Origin: Vreelandella subglaciescola
GTDB lineage: Bacteria > Pseudomonadota > Gammaproteobacteria > Pseudomonadales > Halomonadaceae
DNA: 64,000 nucleotides
Assembly: GCF_900142895.1 (NCBI RefSeq)
Contig: NZ_LT670847.1
Coordinates: forward strand, 806,001 to 870,000
Direction: 5' to 3'
The notes beneath the pieces were generated by a model, which was not told where the DNA came from, did not search any database, and saw only the letters and a program-made list of their open reading frames with translations. Both the position numbers and the translations under genes were made by a program. This document shows, piece after piece, positions 21,106 to 35,795 of this stretch. The first letter of the stretch is position 1; the number at the start of each line of letters is the position of its first letter.

Positions 21106-21962
21106 GGGCGTGTTGACGTTTCATGGCAGGGGTATTGGCAGGATAGGGGCAAGCTCGCAGAATAAAGGTTCCTACGCCAACAAACTGCAAGCCTGCCATG
21201 CCCCGACAAATGCTCACGGATGAACACTGGTCGAAGCTGAAACCTATCCTGCTTCAACAAGGTATTTATGACAAGGCTGACTTGCGTACCACGGTGGAAG
21301 GCATCCTGTATCGGATGCGCACCGGCTGCCCGTGGCGGGATCTACCGGAGACGTTTGGCCCCTGGAATACGGTCTACAAGCGTTTTAACGCCTGGTCAGC
21401 GAGTGGAAAGCTGATGAGGATTTTCAACACGCTGGTGGAAGATCCTGATGTCGAGTGGTTGTTCATTGATGGCTCCTACGTCAAGGCTCATCAGGACAGC
21501 ACAGGGGCTGCCACGGAAGACGCAGAAGCCATCGGCAAAAGTCGTGCAGGCAATACCAGCAAGATCCACTTGACCGTGGATGCTTATGGGTTACCGATTG
21601 CCTTCAGGATAACCGGGGGTGAGGTGCACGACAGCACGGAAGCCCAGGCATTGATTGACGACTTGCCAGCAGGTGATGCGCTGGTGGCTGACAAGGGCTA
21701 TGACAGTGAACGTATCCGTGAGCAGATCGAGGCCAAAGGCATGGCGGCGGTGATTCCACGCAGGCGTAACTCGAAAAAAGGAAATGCCAATCTGGACAGG
21801 GGGTTATATCGCTACCGGCATCTGGTTGAGAATGCCTTTGCTCGACTGAAACCGTATCGCGCCATTGCGACGCGCTACGATAAGCTCAAGCGAAACTACG
21901 AAAGCATGGTGGCCTTGGCGTGCTGTTTGTTGTGGCTCCCAATGTGAAACGTCAACAGGCCC
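21106..21962 (+). mobile_element. IS5-family insertion sequence, copy 1 (857 bp)
   Basis: The ends form ~18-bp terminal inverted repeats, GGGCGTGTTGACGTTTCA and GGGCCTGTTGACGTTTCA, with one mismatch. Flanking TA dinucleotides (21104-21105 and 21963-21964) form a 2-bp target duplication. A single transposase frame fills the element. The same 857-bp element occurs inverted at 30192-31048, with identical encoded protein. The size, the short duplication and a CTAG-type target suggest the IS427 or IS1031 group. The insertion lies between cpdA and cysD. Confidence 0.93.
21198..21947 (+). CDS. IS5-family DDE transposase (copy 1)
   Basis: A 249-residue transposase. The N-terminal DUF4096-like region reads WSKLKPILLQQG and ILYRMRTGCPWRDLPETFGPW. 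Candidate catalytic residues are Asp91 (LFIDGSY), Asp165 (VADKGYD) and Glu211 (LVENAFARLK), followed by the IS5-type RYDKLKRNY motif. The frame is uninterrupted and identical to that at 30207-30956, so both copies look intact and recently active. Confidence 0.95.
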   Translation: MPRQMLTDEHWSKLKPILLQQGIYDKADLRTTVEGILYRMRTGCPWRDLPETFGPWNTVYKRFNAWSASGKLMRIFNTLVEDPDVEWLFIDGSYVKAHQDSTGAATEDAEAIGKSRAGNTSKIHLTVDAYGLPIAFRITGGEVHDSTEAQALIDDLPAGDALVADKGYDSERIREQIEAKGMAAVIPRRRNSKKGNANLDRGLYRYRHLVENAFARLKPYRAIATRYDKLKRNYESMVALACCLLWLPM

Positions 21963-29221: not shown

Positions 29222-29761
29222 ATGACGCGCTGGCGCGATCCGGCGAAAGATCCGCGCCAGGAACCCAAAAGCAACGTGATTACCGCCGAAGGTGCGGCGC
29301 GCATGCGCGGTATTCTGGAGCATTTGTCGCGGGTGAAGCGCCCGGCGCTTTCCACCAAGGTGGGCGAGGCTGCCGCCCAGGGCGACCGCTCGGAGAACGC
29401 GGATTACACCTATAACAAAAAGGAGCTTAACCGCGTCATCGCGCGGATCCGCTACCTGACCAAGCGCCTCGACGAGCTGCAGGTGATCGACCGCCTGCCT
29501 GCCGATACCGGCAAGGTCTTTTTCGGCGCCTTTGTCGAGCTTGAGGACGAGCACGGCGAGACGCTGTCGCTACGCATCGTCGGCCACGATGAAACGGATA
29601 CCCGAAAGCGCTGGATCAGCGTTGATGCACCGCTGGCCAAAGCACTGTTAGGCAAGCAAATTGACGACGATGTCACGGTATCAGCACCCGGCGGCGACAG
29701 CCTGTATAGCGTCAATACAATTCGCTACGCGCCCCGCCATGACGGGCATTCAGGACGCTGA
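29222..29761 (+). CDS. greB: transcription elongation factor GreB
   Basis: GreB rescues backtracked RNA polymerase by promoting transcript cleavage. The N-terminal coiled coil carries the tip GDRSENADYTYNKKELN with the acidic residues that act in the active site, and RVRYLTKR-like RIRYLTKRLDEL follows. The C-terminal FKBP-like domain reads VFFGAFVELEDE and SVDAPLAKALLGKQ. ATG 29222 (MTRWRD) has AAGG seven bases upstream. A start at 29207 is also possible. About 20 extra residues precede the region aligned to E. coli GreB. Confidence 0.93.
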   Translation: MTRWRDPAKDPRQEPKSNVITAEGAARMRGILEHLSRVKRPALSTKVGEAAAQGDRSENADYTYNKKELNRVIARIRYLTKRLDELQVIDRLPADTGKVFFGAFVELEDEHGETLSLRIVGHDETDTRKRWISVDAPLAKALLGKQIDDDVTVSAPGGDSLYSVNTIRYAPRHDGHSGR

Positions 29762-29784
29762 AACCTTGTTTTCCCAGCACAACA

Positions 29785-29798
29785 TTGATCCACATCAA
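29785..29798 (+). promoter_or_regulatory. FNR/Anr box upstream of cyo
   Basis: TTGATCCACATCAA is a perfect match to the FNR/Anr consensus TTGAT-N4-ATCAA. It lies about 330 bases before the cyoA start, in the 364-base gap after greB. In relatives Fnr/Anr represses the cyo quinol oxidase when oxygen is low. The rest of the gap (29800-30125) shows no other clear site, although two pyrimidine-rich tracts may hold the promoter. Confidence 0.7.
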
Positions 29799-30191
29799 CC
29801 TTGGGTGCGACACAGGTGTGGCAAAAAGTCGCTTCACAGCGTCCTTTCACATCCTTGATAATACCCCTCCTCGCGGTTAAAGCCGCTGCGTTTGGCCTCC
29901 CGGTTTTCTCTCTCCCTTTCCGGGCAGACGCTCTGGCTTTACCTGCGGGCGTACGCCGAGCGAAGCGCCCCACCGCCCGTCACCACCACAGCAATGGCGG
30001 CAAGCTCCATGCCACCAATTAGCTTGCTAATAGTTAGCCTGCCTAGCACTAGCGGAGTGATGTTGGTTTGCTTGTCCCTGACAGGCCTGGGGCGTTTTGC
30101 CTCTCCACTCTCACGAGGTCGCAAGATGAGAAGAAAGAGCTTTACGCGCGCCATCGGTACCTTGTTGCTGATCACGCTGCCGCTGTTGCTA

Positions 30192-31048
30192 GGGCCTGTT
30201 GACGTTTCACATTGGGAGCCACAACAAACAGCACGCCAAGGCCACCATGCTTTCGTAGTTTCGCTTGAGCTTATCGTAGCGCGTCGCAATGGCGCGATAC
30301 GGTTTCAGTCGAGCAAAGGCATTCTCAACCAGATGCCGGTAGCGATATAACCCCCTGTCCAGATTGGCATTTCCTTTTTTCGAGTTACGCCTGCGTGGAA
30401 TCACCGCCGCCATGCCTTTGGCCTCGATCTGCTCACGGATACGTTCACTGTCATAGCCCTTGTCAGCCACCAGCGCATCACCTGCTGGCAAGTCGTCAAT
30501 CAATGCCTGGGCTTCCGTGCTGTCGTGCACCTCACCCCCGGTTATCCTGAAGGCAATCGGTAACCCATAAGCATCCACGGTCAAGTGGATCTTGCTGGTA
30601 TTGCCTGCACGACTTTTGCCGATGGCTTCTGCGTCTTCCGTGGCAGCCCCTGTGCTGTCCTGATGAGCCTTGACGTAGGAGCCATCAATGAACAGCCACT
30701 CGACATCAGGATCTTCCACCAGCGTGTTGAAAATCCTCATCAGCTTTCCACTCGCTGACCAGGCGTTAAAACGCTTGTAGACCGTATTCCAGGGGCCAAA
30801 CGTCTCCGGTAGATCCCGCCACGGGCAGCCGGTGCGCATCCGATACAGGATGCCTTCCACCGTGGTACGCAAGTCAGCCTTGTCATAAATACCTTGTTGA
30901 AGCAGGATAGGTTTCAGCTTCGACCAGTGTTCATCCGTGAGCATTTGTCGGGGCATGGCAGGCTTGCAGTTTGTTGGCGTAGGAACCTTTATTCTGCGAG
31001 CTTGCCCCTATCCTGCCAATACCCCTGCCATGAAACGTCAACACGCCC
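30192..31048 (-). mobile_element. IS5-family insertion sequence, copy 2 (857 bp), inside cyoA
   Basis: Inverted copy of the element at 21106-21962 with the same terminal repeats, flanked by TA on both sides (30190-30191 and 31049-31050). The empty target was CTAG within the CyoA lipobox codons. Both cyoA halves adjoin this same copy, so the junctions are those of a simple insertion. The transposase is on the opposite strand to cyo. Confidence 0.95.
30207..30956 (-). CDS. IS5-family DDE transposase (copy 2)
   Basis: Protein identical over all 249 residues to the transposase at 21198-21947, with Asp91, Asp165 and Glu211 as the probable catalytic triad. It is transcribed against the cyo operon and may hinder read-through from the cyo promoter. 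Confidence 0.95.
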   Translation of the reverse strand: MPRQMLTDEHWSKLKPILLQQGIYDKADLRTTVEGILYRMRTGCPWRDLPETFGPWNTVYKRFNAWSASGKLMRIFNTLVEDPDVEWLFIDGSYVKAHQDSTGAATEDAEAIGKSRAGNTSKIHLTVDAYGLPIAFRITGGEVHDSTEAQALIDDLPAGDALVADKGYDSERIREQIEAKGMAAVIPRRRNSKKGNANLDRGLYRYRHLVENAFARLKPYRAIATRYDKLKRNYESMVALACCLLWLPM

Positions 31049-31903
31049 TAGCAGGCTGCGGGTCTGCCCTGCTGGATTCCAAGGGCCAGATCGGCCAGGA
31101 GCAGACGCGGCTGATCTTGACCGTTTTTGGCCTGATGATGATCGTGGTCATTCCGGTTATCGGCATGACCTTCTGGTTTGCCGTACGCTATCGGCGCAGC
31201 AACAAAAACGCGGTTTACCACCCCGACTGGTCGCACTCCAACGCCATTGAAGTGGCGATATGGCTGATTCCCTGCATCATTATCGCGATCCTCGCGACAA
31301 TGACATGGAAAACCTCCCATAGCCTTGACCCCCACAAGCCTATTGAAAGCGACGTTGCCCCGATGGAAATCCAGGTCGTTTCGCTGGATTGGAAATGGCT
31401 GTTCATCTATCCCGAACAGGGCATCGCCACGGTCAACGAGGTCGCCTTTCCCAAAGACGTACCGGTACGCTTCCGGGTGACGTCGGGCTCGGTGATGAAT
31501 GCGTTTTTCATTCCCCATCTGGGCAGCCAGATCTACGCCATGGCGGGCATGGACAACGACGTTCACCTGATCGCCAATGAAAAAGGCGTTTATCCGGGAC
31601 GTTCCACCAACTACAGCGGCTCGGGTTTTGCCGGCATGACGTTTGACGCTCACGCGACCTCACCAGAGGCGTTTGACGACTGGGTTGAAAACGTCCGCGA
31701 GTCCGCCGATAGCCTCACTTTCCCCGAGGAATACGAGGCGCTGGCCTTACCCACCCGGGATGTTCCGGTGAAATATTTCTCCGAGATATCGCCCCGGCTG
31801 TATGAAGACATTGTTCAGAGTTTTCATACCGGCCGCGACGGCGATGCATCCCCAAATAGCCACGGCGATGCGCCGATGAGCGCGGAGGCAGCGGAATAAC
31901 ATT

Positions 31904-33922
31904 ATGTTCGGAAAACTAAGCTGGGAGTCGATCCCCTTCCATGAGCCCATCGTCATGGGCACCGTCGCGGTCATCGCGGTGGTAGCAGCGCTGCTGCTCG
32001 GGGCAATCACCTACTTCAAAAAATGGCAGTATCTGTGGTCAGAGTGGATTACCTCTGTTGACCATAAAAAACTCGGCATCATGTACTTTATCGTCGCGCT
32101 GGTGATGCTGGTTCGCGGTTTCTCGGATGCCATCATGATGCGCAGCCAGCAGGCATTGGCCGCCGGCGACGCCTCGGGCTATCTGCCACCCGAGCACTTT
32201 GATCAGATCTTCACCGCCCACGGCGTGATCATGATCTTCTTTGTGGCAATGCCCATGGTCATCGGCCTGATGAACCTGGTGGTGCCGCTGCAGATCGGCG
32301 CGCGCGACGTGGCCTTCCCGTTTCTCAATAACCTGAGTTTCTGGCTGTTTGTCGCCGGCGTGGTGCTGGTCAACCTGTCGCTGTTTATCGGCGAGTTTGC
32401 CAAAACCGGCTGGCTGGCCTACGCGCCGCTGTCGGGGATTCAGTACAGCCCTGATGTCGGGGTGGACTACTGGATATGGGCGTTGCAAATATCGGGGATC
32501 GGCACGACGCTGACCGGTATCAACTTCTTCGTCACCATTTTGAAGATGCGCACCAAGGGCATGACCATGTTCCGCATGCCGATCTTCACCTGGACGTCGC
32601 TTTGCGCCAACGTGCTGATCATCGCGTCATTCCCGATCCTCACCGCGACCATCGCGATGCTGACGCTGGATCGCTACTTCGGCATGCACTTCTTCACCAA
32701 TGATTTTGGCGGCAACATGATGCTGTACGTCAACCTCATCTGGGCCTGGGGTCACCCCGAAGTGTATATCCTGATTTTGCCGGCATTTGGCGTGTTCTCC
32801 GAGGTCGCCTCGACGTTCTCGCGCAAGCGGCTGTTTGGCTATACCACCATGGTGTGGGCCACGGTATGTATTACCGTGCTCTCGTTCATGGTCTGGCTGC
32901 ACCACTTCTTCACCATGGGTGCGGGCGCCAACGTCAACGCCTTCTTCGGCATCATGACGATGATCATCGCCATTCCCACCGGGGTGAAGATCTTCAACTG
33001 GCTGTTCACCATGTTCCGCGGGAGTATTCAGTTCACCTCGCCGGTCCTCTGGACGCTGGGCTTTATCGTCACCTTTACGCTGGGTGGCATGACCGGCGTA
33101 ATGCTGGCCATTCCGGGCGCCGACTTTGTACTGCATAACAGCCTGTTTGTTATTGCCCACTTCCATAACGTCATCATCGGCGGCGTGGTCTTTGGCATGA
33201 TGGCCGGCCTGACTTACTGGTTCCCCAAGGCGTTCGGTTTCACGCTCAACGAGAAATGGGGCAAGCGTTCGTTCTGGTGCTGGATCATCGGCTTTTACAT
33301 GGCCTTCATGCCGCTCTACGCGCTGAGCTTCTTCGGTGCCGTACGCCGCATGCAGACCTACGCCGACACCAGCTGGCAGCCGCTGATGATTGCCGCCTGG
33401 GTTGGCGCCGTGATCATTCTGATGGGCATTGCCTGCACGGTGATTCAGCTTTACGTCAGCATTCGCGACCGCAAGCAGAATCTCGACGTCACCGGCGACC
33501 CCTGGGATGCGCGTACCTTTGAGTGGGCCACTTCATCTCCGGCACCGTTCTATAACTTTGCGCACCTGCCCGAAGTCACCGGCATCGACGGTTTCTGGGA
33601 AGACAAGCAGAAAAACGGCGCCGAAGCCCTGCTGAGCAATGGGCCTTACGAAGACATCCACATGCCCAAAAACACCGTGGCAGGCCCTGTCATCGGCATT
33701 CTCAGCATCGGTCTGGGCTTTGCGCTGATCTGGCACATCTGGTGGCTGGCGGCCCTTAGCGGCGCGGGCATGTTCGTTGCCTTCCTGATGCGCGTGTTCA
33801 ACGATGACATCGACTACTACGTACCGGCTGCCGAGGTTGAGCGCATCGAGCGCGAGCACCGCGAGCGCTGGGCGCGTCGCGACGAACTCGAGCACACCAA
33901 CCGAGTAGAGGTGCGGGCATAA
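31904..33922 (+). CDS. cyoB: cytochrome bo3 quinol oxidase subunit I
   Basis: Subunit I (672 residues) holds haem b, haem o3 and CuB and pumps protons. Visible ligand motifs are [11 protein letters not shown] (low-spin haem His), [17 protein letters not shown] (CuB His and cross-linked Tyr), [10 protein letters not shown] (CuB His pair) and [13 protein letters not shown] (haem ligands). N- and C-terminal extra helices are of CyoB type. It starts five bases after the cyoA frame ends. Expression may be reduced by the IS upstream. Confidence 0.96.
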
Positions 33923-33923
33923 C

Positions 33924-34562
33924 ATGGCAACGCAAACAATGAGTAATCAACACGCCCAGACGGCTGCGGCCGAGCATGAGCACGATCACCACGCCGATCA
34001 TCATGATGCCGGCGGCACCAAGGTCTTCGGCTTCTGGGTCTATCTAATGAGCGATCTGGTGATCTTCGGGTCACTGTTCGCCACTTACGCCGTGCTCGCT
34101 GGGGGTACGGCGGGTGGCCCCTCGGGTCAGGATATTTTCGAGCTACCCTTTGTGCTGGTCGAAACCTTCCTGCTGCTGTTCTCGAGCTTTACCTACGGCA
34201 TGGCCGTGCTTTCGATGAACACCGACAAGGTCGGCCAGCTGAAAGCCTGGCTGGGCATTACCTTTTTGCTCGGCGCGGCTTTTGTGGGCATGGAGCTTTA
34301 CGAGTTCCACCACCTGATCGAGGAAGGCTTTGGCCCGGATCGCAGCGCGTTTCTCACCGCGTTCTTCACCCTGGTGGGCACCCACGGGCTGCACGTCACC
34401 TTTGGCCTGATCTGGATTGCGGTGATGTTCGTGCAGGTCTCGACCAAAGGGCTGAATCACATGACCCGCCCGCGGATCATGTGCCTGAGCCTGTTCTGGC
34501 ACTTTCTGGACATTGTCTGGATCTGCGTCTTCTCCTTCGTCTACCTGATGGGAGTGCTGTGA
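33924..34562 (+). CDS. cyoC: cytochrome bo3 quinol oxidase subunit III
   Basis: A 212-residue, five-helix subunit III. It starts with a hydrophilic His-rich tail ([14 protein letters not shown]), then [26 protein letters not shown]. The conserved acidic and aromatic pattern [23 protein letters not shown] and [13 protein letters not shown] follows. It sits one base after the cyoB stop. The N-terminal His cluster may bind metal, but subunit III tails vary. Confidence 0.95.
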
Positions 34563-34563
34563 T

Positions 34564-34896
34564 ATGAGCGATTCACATACGGCGCCGGGCGGCGCCAGCC
34601 ACGGCAGCGTCAAAACCTACGTCGTCGGGCTGATTCTTTCCCTCGTGCTGACGGTGATCCCGTTTACCGCGGTAATGAGCGGCGCGTTCAATACCGGCAT
34701 GACCGTGATCATCGTTGTCGCCATGGCGGTCGCCCAGATTCTGGTGCAGCTGATCATGTTCATGCACATGAACACTAAGTCTGACGACGGCTGGAATCTG
34801 ACATCTTTCGTTTTCACCATAACCATCCTGGCTCTGGTCGTGGGAGGTTCGCTATGGATCATGCACCACTTGCAACTCAATATGATGATCGGCTAG
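34564..34896 (+). CDS. cyoD: cytochrome bo3 quinol oxidase subunit IV
   Basis: A 110-residue, three-helix subunit IV that stabilises the oxidase. [46 protein letters not shown] and [17 protein letters not shown] follow the CyoD pattern. It starts one base after cyoC. Its end overlaps cyoE by 43 bases. Confidence 0.95.
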
Positions 34897-35795
34897 TGGC
34901 AACGCCGAGCCGATTCCAGGACTTTATCACCCTGACCAAGCCGGGCATCATTGGCGGTAACGTGATCTCGGTGATGGGCGGTTTCTTTCTCGCCGCCCAG
35001 GGCACGTTTGACGGCTGGCTGTTTGTCGCCGCCCTGCTGGGGCTGGCGCTGGTGATTGCCTCGGGTTGCGCGTTCAACAACGTGATTGACCGCGACATCG
35101 ACGCGCTCATGTCGCGCACCCGCAACCGCCCGCTGGTACAGGGGCGCATCACCCCGGCGGCGACGCTGGTCTTTGCCACGCTTCTGGGCGCCGGCGGGTT
35201 TGGCCTGCTGGCACTGGGTACCAACGCGCTGACGGTCGGCCTTGCCGCGTTCGGCTTTGCGATTTATGTGGGGGCGTATAGCCTTTATATGAAGCGCAAC
35301 TCGGAATTCGGCACGCTGGTCGGTAGCCTTTCCGGCGCGATGCCGCCGGTGGTGGGCTATTGCGCGGTGACCGGGCAGTTTGATACCGGCGCGCTGACGC
35401 TGCTGGTGATTTTCTGCCTGTGGCAGATGCCGCACTCCTACGCGATTGCGATCTTTCGTCGGGAAGATTACCGCGCGGCGTCGATTCCAGTACTGCCGGT
35501 AGTGCGCGGCATTGAAACCGCCAAGCACTATATCCTCGGCTATATTCTGGCCTTTGTGGTCGCTACGCTGACGCTGAGCCTGGCCGGCTACGCAGGCGCT
35601 GGCTACTTTGCCGTCGCACTGGTGATGGGGGTTTACTGGCTGTATCTGGGGCTTGAAGGCTACCGCGCCCGCGACGATGTCAAATGGGCCAAGCAGGTGT
35701 TCGGCTTCTCCATTCTCACCATCACCGCTCTGAGCGTGATGATGTCGGTAGATTCAAGCCTGGCGCCCAACGTAGCGCTCTGGACGTCACTCTAA
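34854..35795 (+). CDS. cyoE: protohaem IX farnesyltransferase (haem O synthase)
   Basis: CyoE farnesylates haem B to haem O for the bo3 oxidase. It is a nine-helix UbiA-family protein (313 residues). Prenyl-diphosphate and Mg-binding motifs are [18 protein letters not shown] and the loop [24 protein letters not shown]. The ATG at 34854 lies inside cyoD and has GGAGG six bases upstream, which supports the overlapping start. It ends the operon before a strong terminator. Confidence 0.95.

What the first reader, a model, noticed from the sequence alone, without database searches (positions are those of the whole stretch)
30126..31899. IS5-family element lands exactly in the CyoA lipobox
Removing 30192-31048 and one TA restores CTG TTG CTA GCA GGC TGC (LLLAGC) in frame. 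The signal peptide is severed from an otherwise intact mature subunit II and from cyoBCDE. By chance the frame stays open from the cyoA body back into the IS, with ATGs at 31030, 30955 and 30937, so an unlipidated or mis-signalled CyoA may still be made. This is either a recent oxidase loss or a live test of whether CyoA needs its lipid anchor.
Basis: seen in the sequence. Interest (0 to 1): 0.75.

Follow-up and report, generated by a model that had tools for sequence, protein, structure and literature searches.

The report
Jumping gene cuts oxidase subunit gene
A common kind of bacterial jumping gene has landed in the start of an oxygen-using enzyme gene, at the only spot in that gene matching its usual target, and most likely switched the enzyme off; this is real but ordinary.

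Summary
An 857-bp IS5-family element (30192-31048; intact transposase; TA duplication) splits cyoA inside the lipobox Leu codon, and the flanks join into a full-length CyoA frame.

The precise landing needs no special explanation. Of 19 copies examined of this IS and its relatives, 19 lie in TA and 18 in YTAR. Uninterrupted cyoA has exactly one YTAR: the CTAG of its lipobox codons CTA-GCA. Its three nearest held relatives read CTGGC there. The IS begins with G and ends with C, so insertion into CTAG rebuilds CTAG at both junctions; that is why L-A-G-C survives downstream.

The open frame back into the IS is real, but 30937 is GTG. The three named starts lack a convincing Shine-Dalgarno, no outward sigma-70-like promoter was found, and the hydrophobic signal core before the lipobox is gone.

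Most likely outcome: loss of cytochrome bo, probably with polarity on cyoBCDE (inferred). It is not a clean lipid-anchor test. The assembly shows no second cyo operon; two cbb3-type operons and a bd-type oxidase remain. In the genus, 18 of 82 genomes show no close CyoA match.

The parts
29785..29798 (.). FNR/ANR-like box TTGATCCACATCAA upstream of cyo
   Evidence: the only exact TTGATN4ATCAA in the window; exact in G066 and G019, off the motif in G034. Motif and name recalled.
29833..29862 (+). candidate native cyo promoter TTCACA-18-GATAAT
   Evidence: 10 of 12 consensus matches; both hexamers kept in G066, only in part in G019 and G034
30126..30350 (+). severed cyoA signal-peptide fragment, running on into the IS (74 residues in all)
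   Evidence: native start has an SD-like sequence, -6.6 kcal/mol
30190..30191 (.). TA target duplication, left copy
30192..31048 (-). 857-bp IS5-family insertion sequence, transposase on the minus strand
   Evidence: six copies in the genome; TIR 17/18
30207..30956 (-). IS5-family transposase, 249 aa, single uninterrupted frame
   Evidence: NCBIfam NF033580 295.1 bits over cut-off 110; Pfam DDE_Tnp_1 and DUF4096
31049..31050 (.). TA target duplication, right copy
30937..31899 (+). chimeric open frame: IS right end fused to the mature CyoA body (starts GTG 30937, ATG 30955, TTG 30964, ATG 31030)
   Evidence: TIGR01433 CyoA 344.2 bits over cut-off 266.2 for the body
31904..35795 (+). cyoB, cyoC, cyoD, cyoE, all open
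   Evidence: full-length counterparts in G066 and G019; those of G034 were not fetched beyond the start of cyoB

Best explanation
A recently moved, probably active IS5-family element inserted into the only YTAR site of cyoA, the CTAG formed by the lipobox codons CTA-GCA. It separates the signal peptide and ribosome-binding site from the CyoA body. Shown: the insertion, the TA duplication, the target preference, the uniqueness of the site, the open downstream genes and the absence of a second cyo operon from the assembly. Inferred: little or no correctly targeted CyoA is made; the stretch of nearly 600 bases between the end of the N-terminal fragment (30350) and the first chimera start, in which no sense-strand frame of 60 aa or more lies wholly, favours transcriptional polarity on cyoBCDE; so cytochrome bo is lost or nearly so, and the cell respires through the cbb3-type and bd-type oxidases.
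For: IS boundaries, TIRs and TSD. Target sites: TA in 19 of 19 and YTAR in 18 of 19 copies examined (6 of 6 own, 6 scored in G022, 6 scored in G034, 1 on plasmid pHA020_1). One YTAR, which is the one CTAG, in the 915-bp uninterrupted cyoA. Relatives G066, G034 and G019 have an uninterrupted 915-bp cyoA and read CTGGC at that place. Starts 30937, 30955 and 31030 have anti-SD energies +0.4, -1.9 and +2.2 kcal/mol against -6.6 for the native start; median of 869 plus-strand ATGs -1.7. No promoter-like site reads out of the IS towards the body; the one in the IS end reads inward, 31019-30991 minus. One CyoA match in the genome and one CyoB-type among four COX1-family proteins. Other oxidases: a CcoN above cut-off, a second cbb3-like subunit I with FixO-like and cytochrome-c-like neighbours, CydA.
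Against: cyoB has its own weak SD-like sequence (-3.5 kcal/mol), and cyoBCDE are undamaged, so partial operon expression is possible. The chimera has a moderately hydrophobic stretch (12-residue Kyte-Doolittle mean 1.72 against 2.52 for the native signal), and an in-frame TTG at 30964 has a better SD energy (-5.0, about the best tenth of background ATGs). The promoter scan covers only sigma-70 consensus sites. No expression or activity data exist here.
Confidence: 0.85

Rival explanations
1. The chimeric frame is translated. An unlipidated or mis-signalled CyoA, with an IS-encoded N-terminus and TM1 acting as an N-out signal anchor, still assembles with CyoBCDE.
For: Frame open to about 30901; L-A-G-C retained; both hydrophobic helices and the periplasmic domain are in the frame. 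A TTG at 30964 has an SD energy of -5.0. In E. coli the CyoA N-terminal domain is inserted by YidC alone (passages of PMC9360617 read).
Against: No convincing SD at the three named starts, no outward promoter-like site, no strong hydrophobic core before the lipobox. 109 of 109 other CyoA loci examined keep a lipobox-type cysteine motif.
Confidence: 0.08
2. The insertion is present in only part of the cultured population, or is an assembly error; an intact cyoA exists.
For: Near-identical IS copies can mislead assembly, and IS insertions can arise during culture (inference).
Against: Single 3.11-Mb contig; both junctions carry the same TA duplication and join into a perfect frame, as true transposition predicts. 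No second CyoA in the assembly. No reads were available.
Confidence: 0.05
3. The insertion was selected because loss or reduction of cytochrome bo is advantageous in this strain's habitat or in culture (compatible with the best explanation; it concerns why, not what).
For: 18 of 82 genomes of the genus (15 of the 73 with completeness of 90% or more and contamination of 5% or less) have no close CyoA match (best E above 1e-20), so the operon looks dispensable in the genus.
Against: No second lesion in cyo was found; one insertion is explained equally well by drift. Genomes without cyo may have other oxidases: the weak matches in them may be cytochrome c oxidase subunit II (inference, not searched).
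Confidence: 0.15

Closest known systems
IS5 family, IS427 group (as tabulated for Paracoccus, PMC3281130, passages read)
   Same: Tabulated elements of the group in the passages seen are 832-865 bp, with a 2-bp duplication in all but ISPha1 (4) and short inverted repeats; the paper reports high copy numbers for most
   Different: Single transposase frame rather than the two overlapping frames that the paper reports for the group; it names ISPha1 as a single-frame exception. Group assignment was not tested against ISfinder.
IS5 element on Halomonas sp. A020 plasmid pHA020_1 (NZ_AP022851.1)
   Same: 91.9% identity over all 857 bases; annotated IS5 family transposase; inserted at CTAG
   Different: Lies on a 5.8-kb plasmid
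E. coli CyoA, cytochrome bo3 subunit II (PDB 1fft_B)
   Same: Body aligns from the LxGC lipobox through both helices and the periplasmic domain
   Different: Here the signal peptide is detached by the IS
IS elements near cyo in Acidithiobacillus ferrivorans YL15 (PMC10214660, passages read)
   Same: IS110, IS3 and IS5 elements reported upstream of cyoABCD
   Different: Upstream of the operon in the passage seen, not inside cyoA

Membership tests
IS5 family insertion sequence | Transposase matches an IS5-family model above cut-off | tested here: met
   NF033580 295.1 bits, cut-off 110
IS5 family insertion sequence | Terminal inverted repeats and short target duplication | tested here: met
   18-bp TIR with 17 matches; TA on both sides in 19 of 19 copies examined
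IS427 group of IS5 | Two overlapping frames with a frameshift motif (usual in the group) | tested here: not met
   One 249-aa frame covers the model; PMC3281130 notes one single-frame exception. I therefore do not file it under IS427.
IS427 group of IS5 | Assignment in ISfinder | not testable with these tools
   ISfinder is not available
Functional CyoA lipoprotein | N-region, hydrophobic core and lipobox Cys contiguous in one frame | tested here: not met
   Core and n-region lie before the IS; LAGC lies after it
Functional CyoA lipoprotein | Mature subunit II body intact | tested here: met
   TIGR01433 344.2 bits over 266.2; NF007816 is below its cut-off (410.6 of 511)

The most novel reading that the evidence does not exclude
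The IS right end supplies a working start and surrogate N-terminus, so that an unlipidated CyoA with an IS-encoded leader is inserted by its own TM1 and keeps cytochrome bo partly active: a natural gene fusion that bypasses the lipoprotein pathway.
Probability: 0.06. Interest if true: 0.5.

Novelty: new member of a known kind. Interest (0 to 1): 0.2.

Why it matters
It shows how a strict target preference can make an insertion look as if it aims at a functional motif: a synonymous difference (CTA-GCA here, CTG-GCN in the three nearest held relatives) gives this cyoA its single landing site. If cytochrome bo is lost, the strain is a natural cyo mutant of a halophile. Beyond that it is a routine gene disruption.

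Tried and rejected
Rejected: that the lipobox itself attracts the IS. The five other own copies lie, as I read them, outside genes or in TAG stop codons, and the 19 target sites share only TA, nearly always within YTAR. Rejected: a second intact cyo operon in the assembly. Considered: a single-TM subunit II from internal starts at 31135, 31138 or 31165; SD energies are only -1.5 to -2.4 kcal/mol, so unlikely. Considered: a surrogate lipobox in the IS-encoded leader (..FILRAC); arginine at -2 does not fit the lipobox pattern that I recall, and no predictor was available. No structure prediction was run, because folding the chimera would not decide targeting. Literature: searches listed 15, 15 and 10 of 207, 22 and 45 papers. 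Two listings that hold 'cyoA' were looked into by passage: PMC10214660 reports IS elements upstream of cyoABCD in Acidithiobacillus ferrivorans YL15, and PMC2647930 a cyoABCD cluster on a Pseudomonas island. The rest of those three lists were seen as listings only. I found no report of this insertion there, which is not a claim that none exists.

They confirmed most names that I had only read off, but for the L004 neighbour they support no more than a pyridine nucleotide-disulphide oxidoreductase, so the name type II NADH dehydrogenase was dropped.

Full report
Observation. The window lies in a single-contig genome of 3.11 Mb. The best named matches of the CyoA body are Halomonadaceae: Halomonas ventosae, Vreelandella lionensis and Halomonas salinarum head the list by E-value (records of the own genome or very near it may be left out there). 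cyoA starts at ATG 30126 and is cut after TA 30190-30191 by an 857-bp element, 30192-31048, followed by TA 31049-31050. Joining the flanks with one TA gives an uninterrupted 304-residue CyoA beginning MRRKSFTRAIGTLLLITLPLLLAGCGSALLDSKG.

The element. The minus-strand frame 30207-30956 (249 aa) matches the NCBIfam IS5 transposase model NF033580 at 295.1 bits, cut-off 110, and Pfam DDE_Tnp_1 and DUF4096. The ends are 18-bp inverted repeats with one mismatch. The own genome holds six copies: three identical (the cyoA copy among them) and three with one change at position 504. In the genus search 29 of 82 genomes, the own one included, have some match, but in that call only six candidates per genome were scored; the best outside the own genome are 94% (G034) and 88% (G022). 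A named relative at 91.9% lies on plasmid pHA020_1 of Halomonas sp. A020, the only one of 72,556 plasmid records matched in 'near' mode. By length, 2-bp duplication and repeat length it resembles the IS427-group elements tabulated in PMC3281130 (passages read), but that group usually has two frames and this element has one.

Why exactly the lipobox. I read target sites of 19 copies: six of six own, six of G022 and one on pHA020_1 (read by eye because the script's label was off by one base), six of G034. All 19 have TA, 18 of 19 fit YTAR and 12 of 19 are CTAG; the exception to YTAR is GTAG in G034. The uninterrupted 915-bp cyoA contains one YTAR, a CTAG at position 64, formed by the lipobox codons CTA GCA; the window without this IS copy holds 193 YTAR and 35 CTAG in 63,141 bases. 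So if the IS enters cyoA by its usual preference, it can only enter here. The three nearest held relatives read CTGGC at that place and have uninterrupted 915-bp cyoA frames. Because the element starts with G and ends with C, insertion into CTAG regenerates CTAG at both junctions. This explains why L-A-G-C is still encoded to the right of the IS.

The other five own copies. L004 sits in the TAG stop of a pyridine nucleotide-disulphide oxidoreductase (Pfam PF07992 166.6 bits; none of the 25 NCBIfam models shown of 29 reaches its cut-off). L001 sits in the TAG stop of a TonB-receptor beta-barrel protein (PF00593 102.9 bits) on one strand and of another DDE transposase (PF01609 74.5 bits) on the other. 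In both the stop is regenerated by the IS end (read from the junctions). L006 lies 17 bases after a metallophosphoesterase (PF00149) and before CysD (TIGR02039 532.7 bits). L005 lies 40 bases after a nitroreductase-family gene (PF00881). L003 has no frame of 100 aa or more across the site. Against this tidy picture: stop-to-stop frames of 157, 131, 147 and 260 aa do cross the sites in L001, L004, L005 and L006. I judge them spurious because they overlap better genes or, for the L005 frame, because its 109-aa piece on one side matched nothing in Pfam; the others were not searched. On this reading cyoA is the only clear gene disruption among six.

What it does to CyoA. The N-terminal fragment reads 74 residues and stops at 30350. 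The body frame is open back to about 30901. Anti-SD pairing energies are +0.4, -1.9 and +2.2 kcal/mol for starts 30937, 30955 and 31030, -5.0 for a TTG at 30964, against -6.6 for the native cyoA start; over 869 ATGs on the plus strand of the window the median is -1.7, the 10th percentile -5.0 and the 5th -5.9. The most hydrophobic 12-residue stretch of the IS-encoded leader averages 1.72 against 2.52 in the native signal. The promoter scan of 29750-31920 found three sites against 1.0 expected from shuffles: one on the plus strand upstream of the native start, one in the IS right end reading inward, and one inside the cyoA body on the minus strand; none reads out of the IS towards the body. In E. 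coli the N-terminal domain of CyoA is inserted by YidC and the C-terminal domain by SecYEG and SecA (PMC9360617, passages read), and the protein is listed as N-in with three TMs (PMC9099147, passages read). Losing the signal therefore removes a targeting and topology determinant, not just a lipid. That unlipidated E. coli CyoA still functions is recalled, not retrieved.

The rest of respiration. COX1-family proteins number four: CyoB (TIGR02843 1148.6 bits over 1020), CcoN (TIGR00780 764 bits over 583), a divergent cbb3-like subunit I below that cut-off (263.7) with a FixO-like (PF02433) and a cytochrome-c-like neighbour, and a protein that I read as NorB, with a cytochrome c neighbour; NCBIfam gave no Nor match for that pair, and the name NorB is my reading of the gene set. 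One CydA is present. CyoA has a single match in the genome at E up to 0.001. In the genus, 18 of 82 genomes have only weak matches (best E above 1e-20), 15 of them among the 73 with completeness of 90% or more and contamination of 5% or less; some are drafts, so gaps are possible. cyo thus looks dispensable in the genus, though those genomes may carry other oxidases.

Verdict. A real, probably recent and probably inactivating IS insertion whose position is set by target preference. 'Recent' rests on near-identical IS copies, an undecayed body frame and absence from the three nearest held relatives; it cannot be dated. Interest is low unless the chimera proves to be made and active.

Noticed in passing
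window 29785-29798: Perfect FNR/ANR-like box upstream of cyo, the only exact one in the window, exact in G066 and G019 and degenerate in G034; fits oxygen-dependent repression of cyo (recalled for E. coli).
   Followed up: partly
window 30126-30161: The first 12 codons of cyoA are unusually conserved at DNA level in four species: 9 of 10 degenerate amino-acid-invariant codons identical, against 94 of 193 over the later codons counted; may reflect translation initiation or regulation.
   Followed up: partly
L001 and L004, IS junctions: Two copies of this IS abut a second IS5-like element (DDE transposase) at CTAG, so the two elements nest or share a target preference.
   Followed up: partly
window 21106-21962: A second copy of the same IS in the window (L006), 17 bases after a metallophosphoesterase gene and upstream of cysD.
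   Followed up: partly
L009 1243-4070: Divergent cbb3-like oxidase operon: 538-aa subunit I scoring below the CcoN cut-off, followed by FixO-like and cytochrome-c-like proteins.
   Followed up: partly
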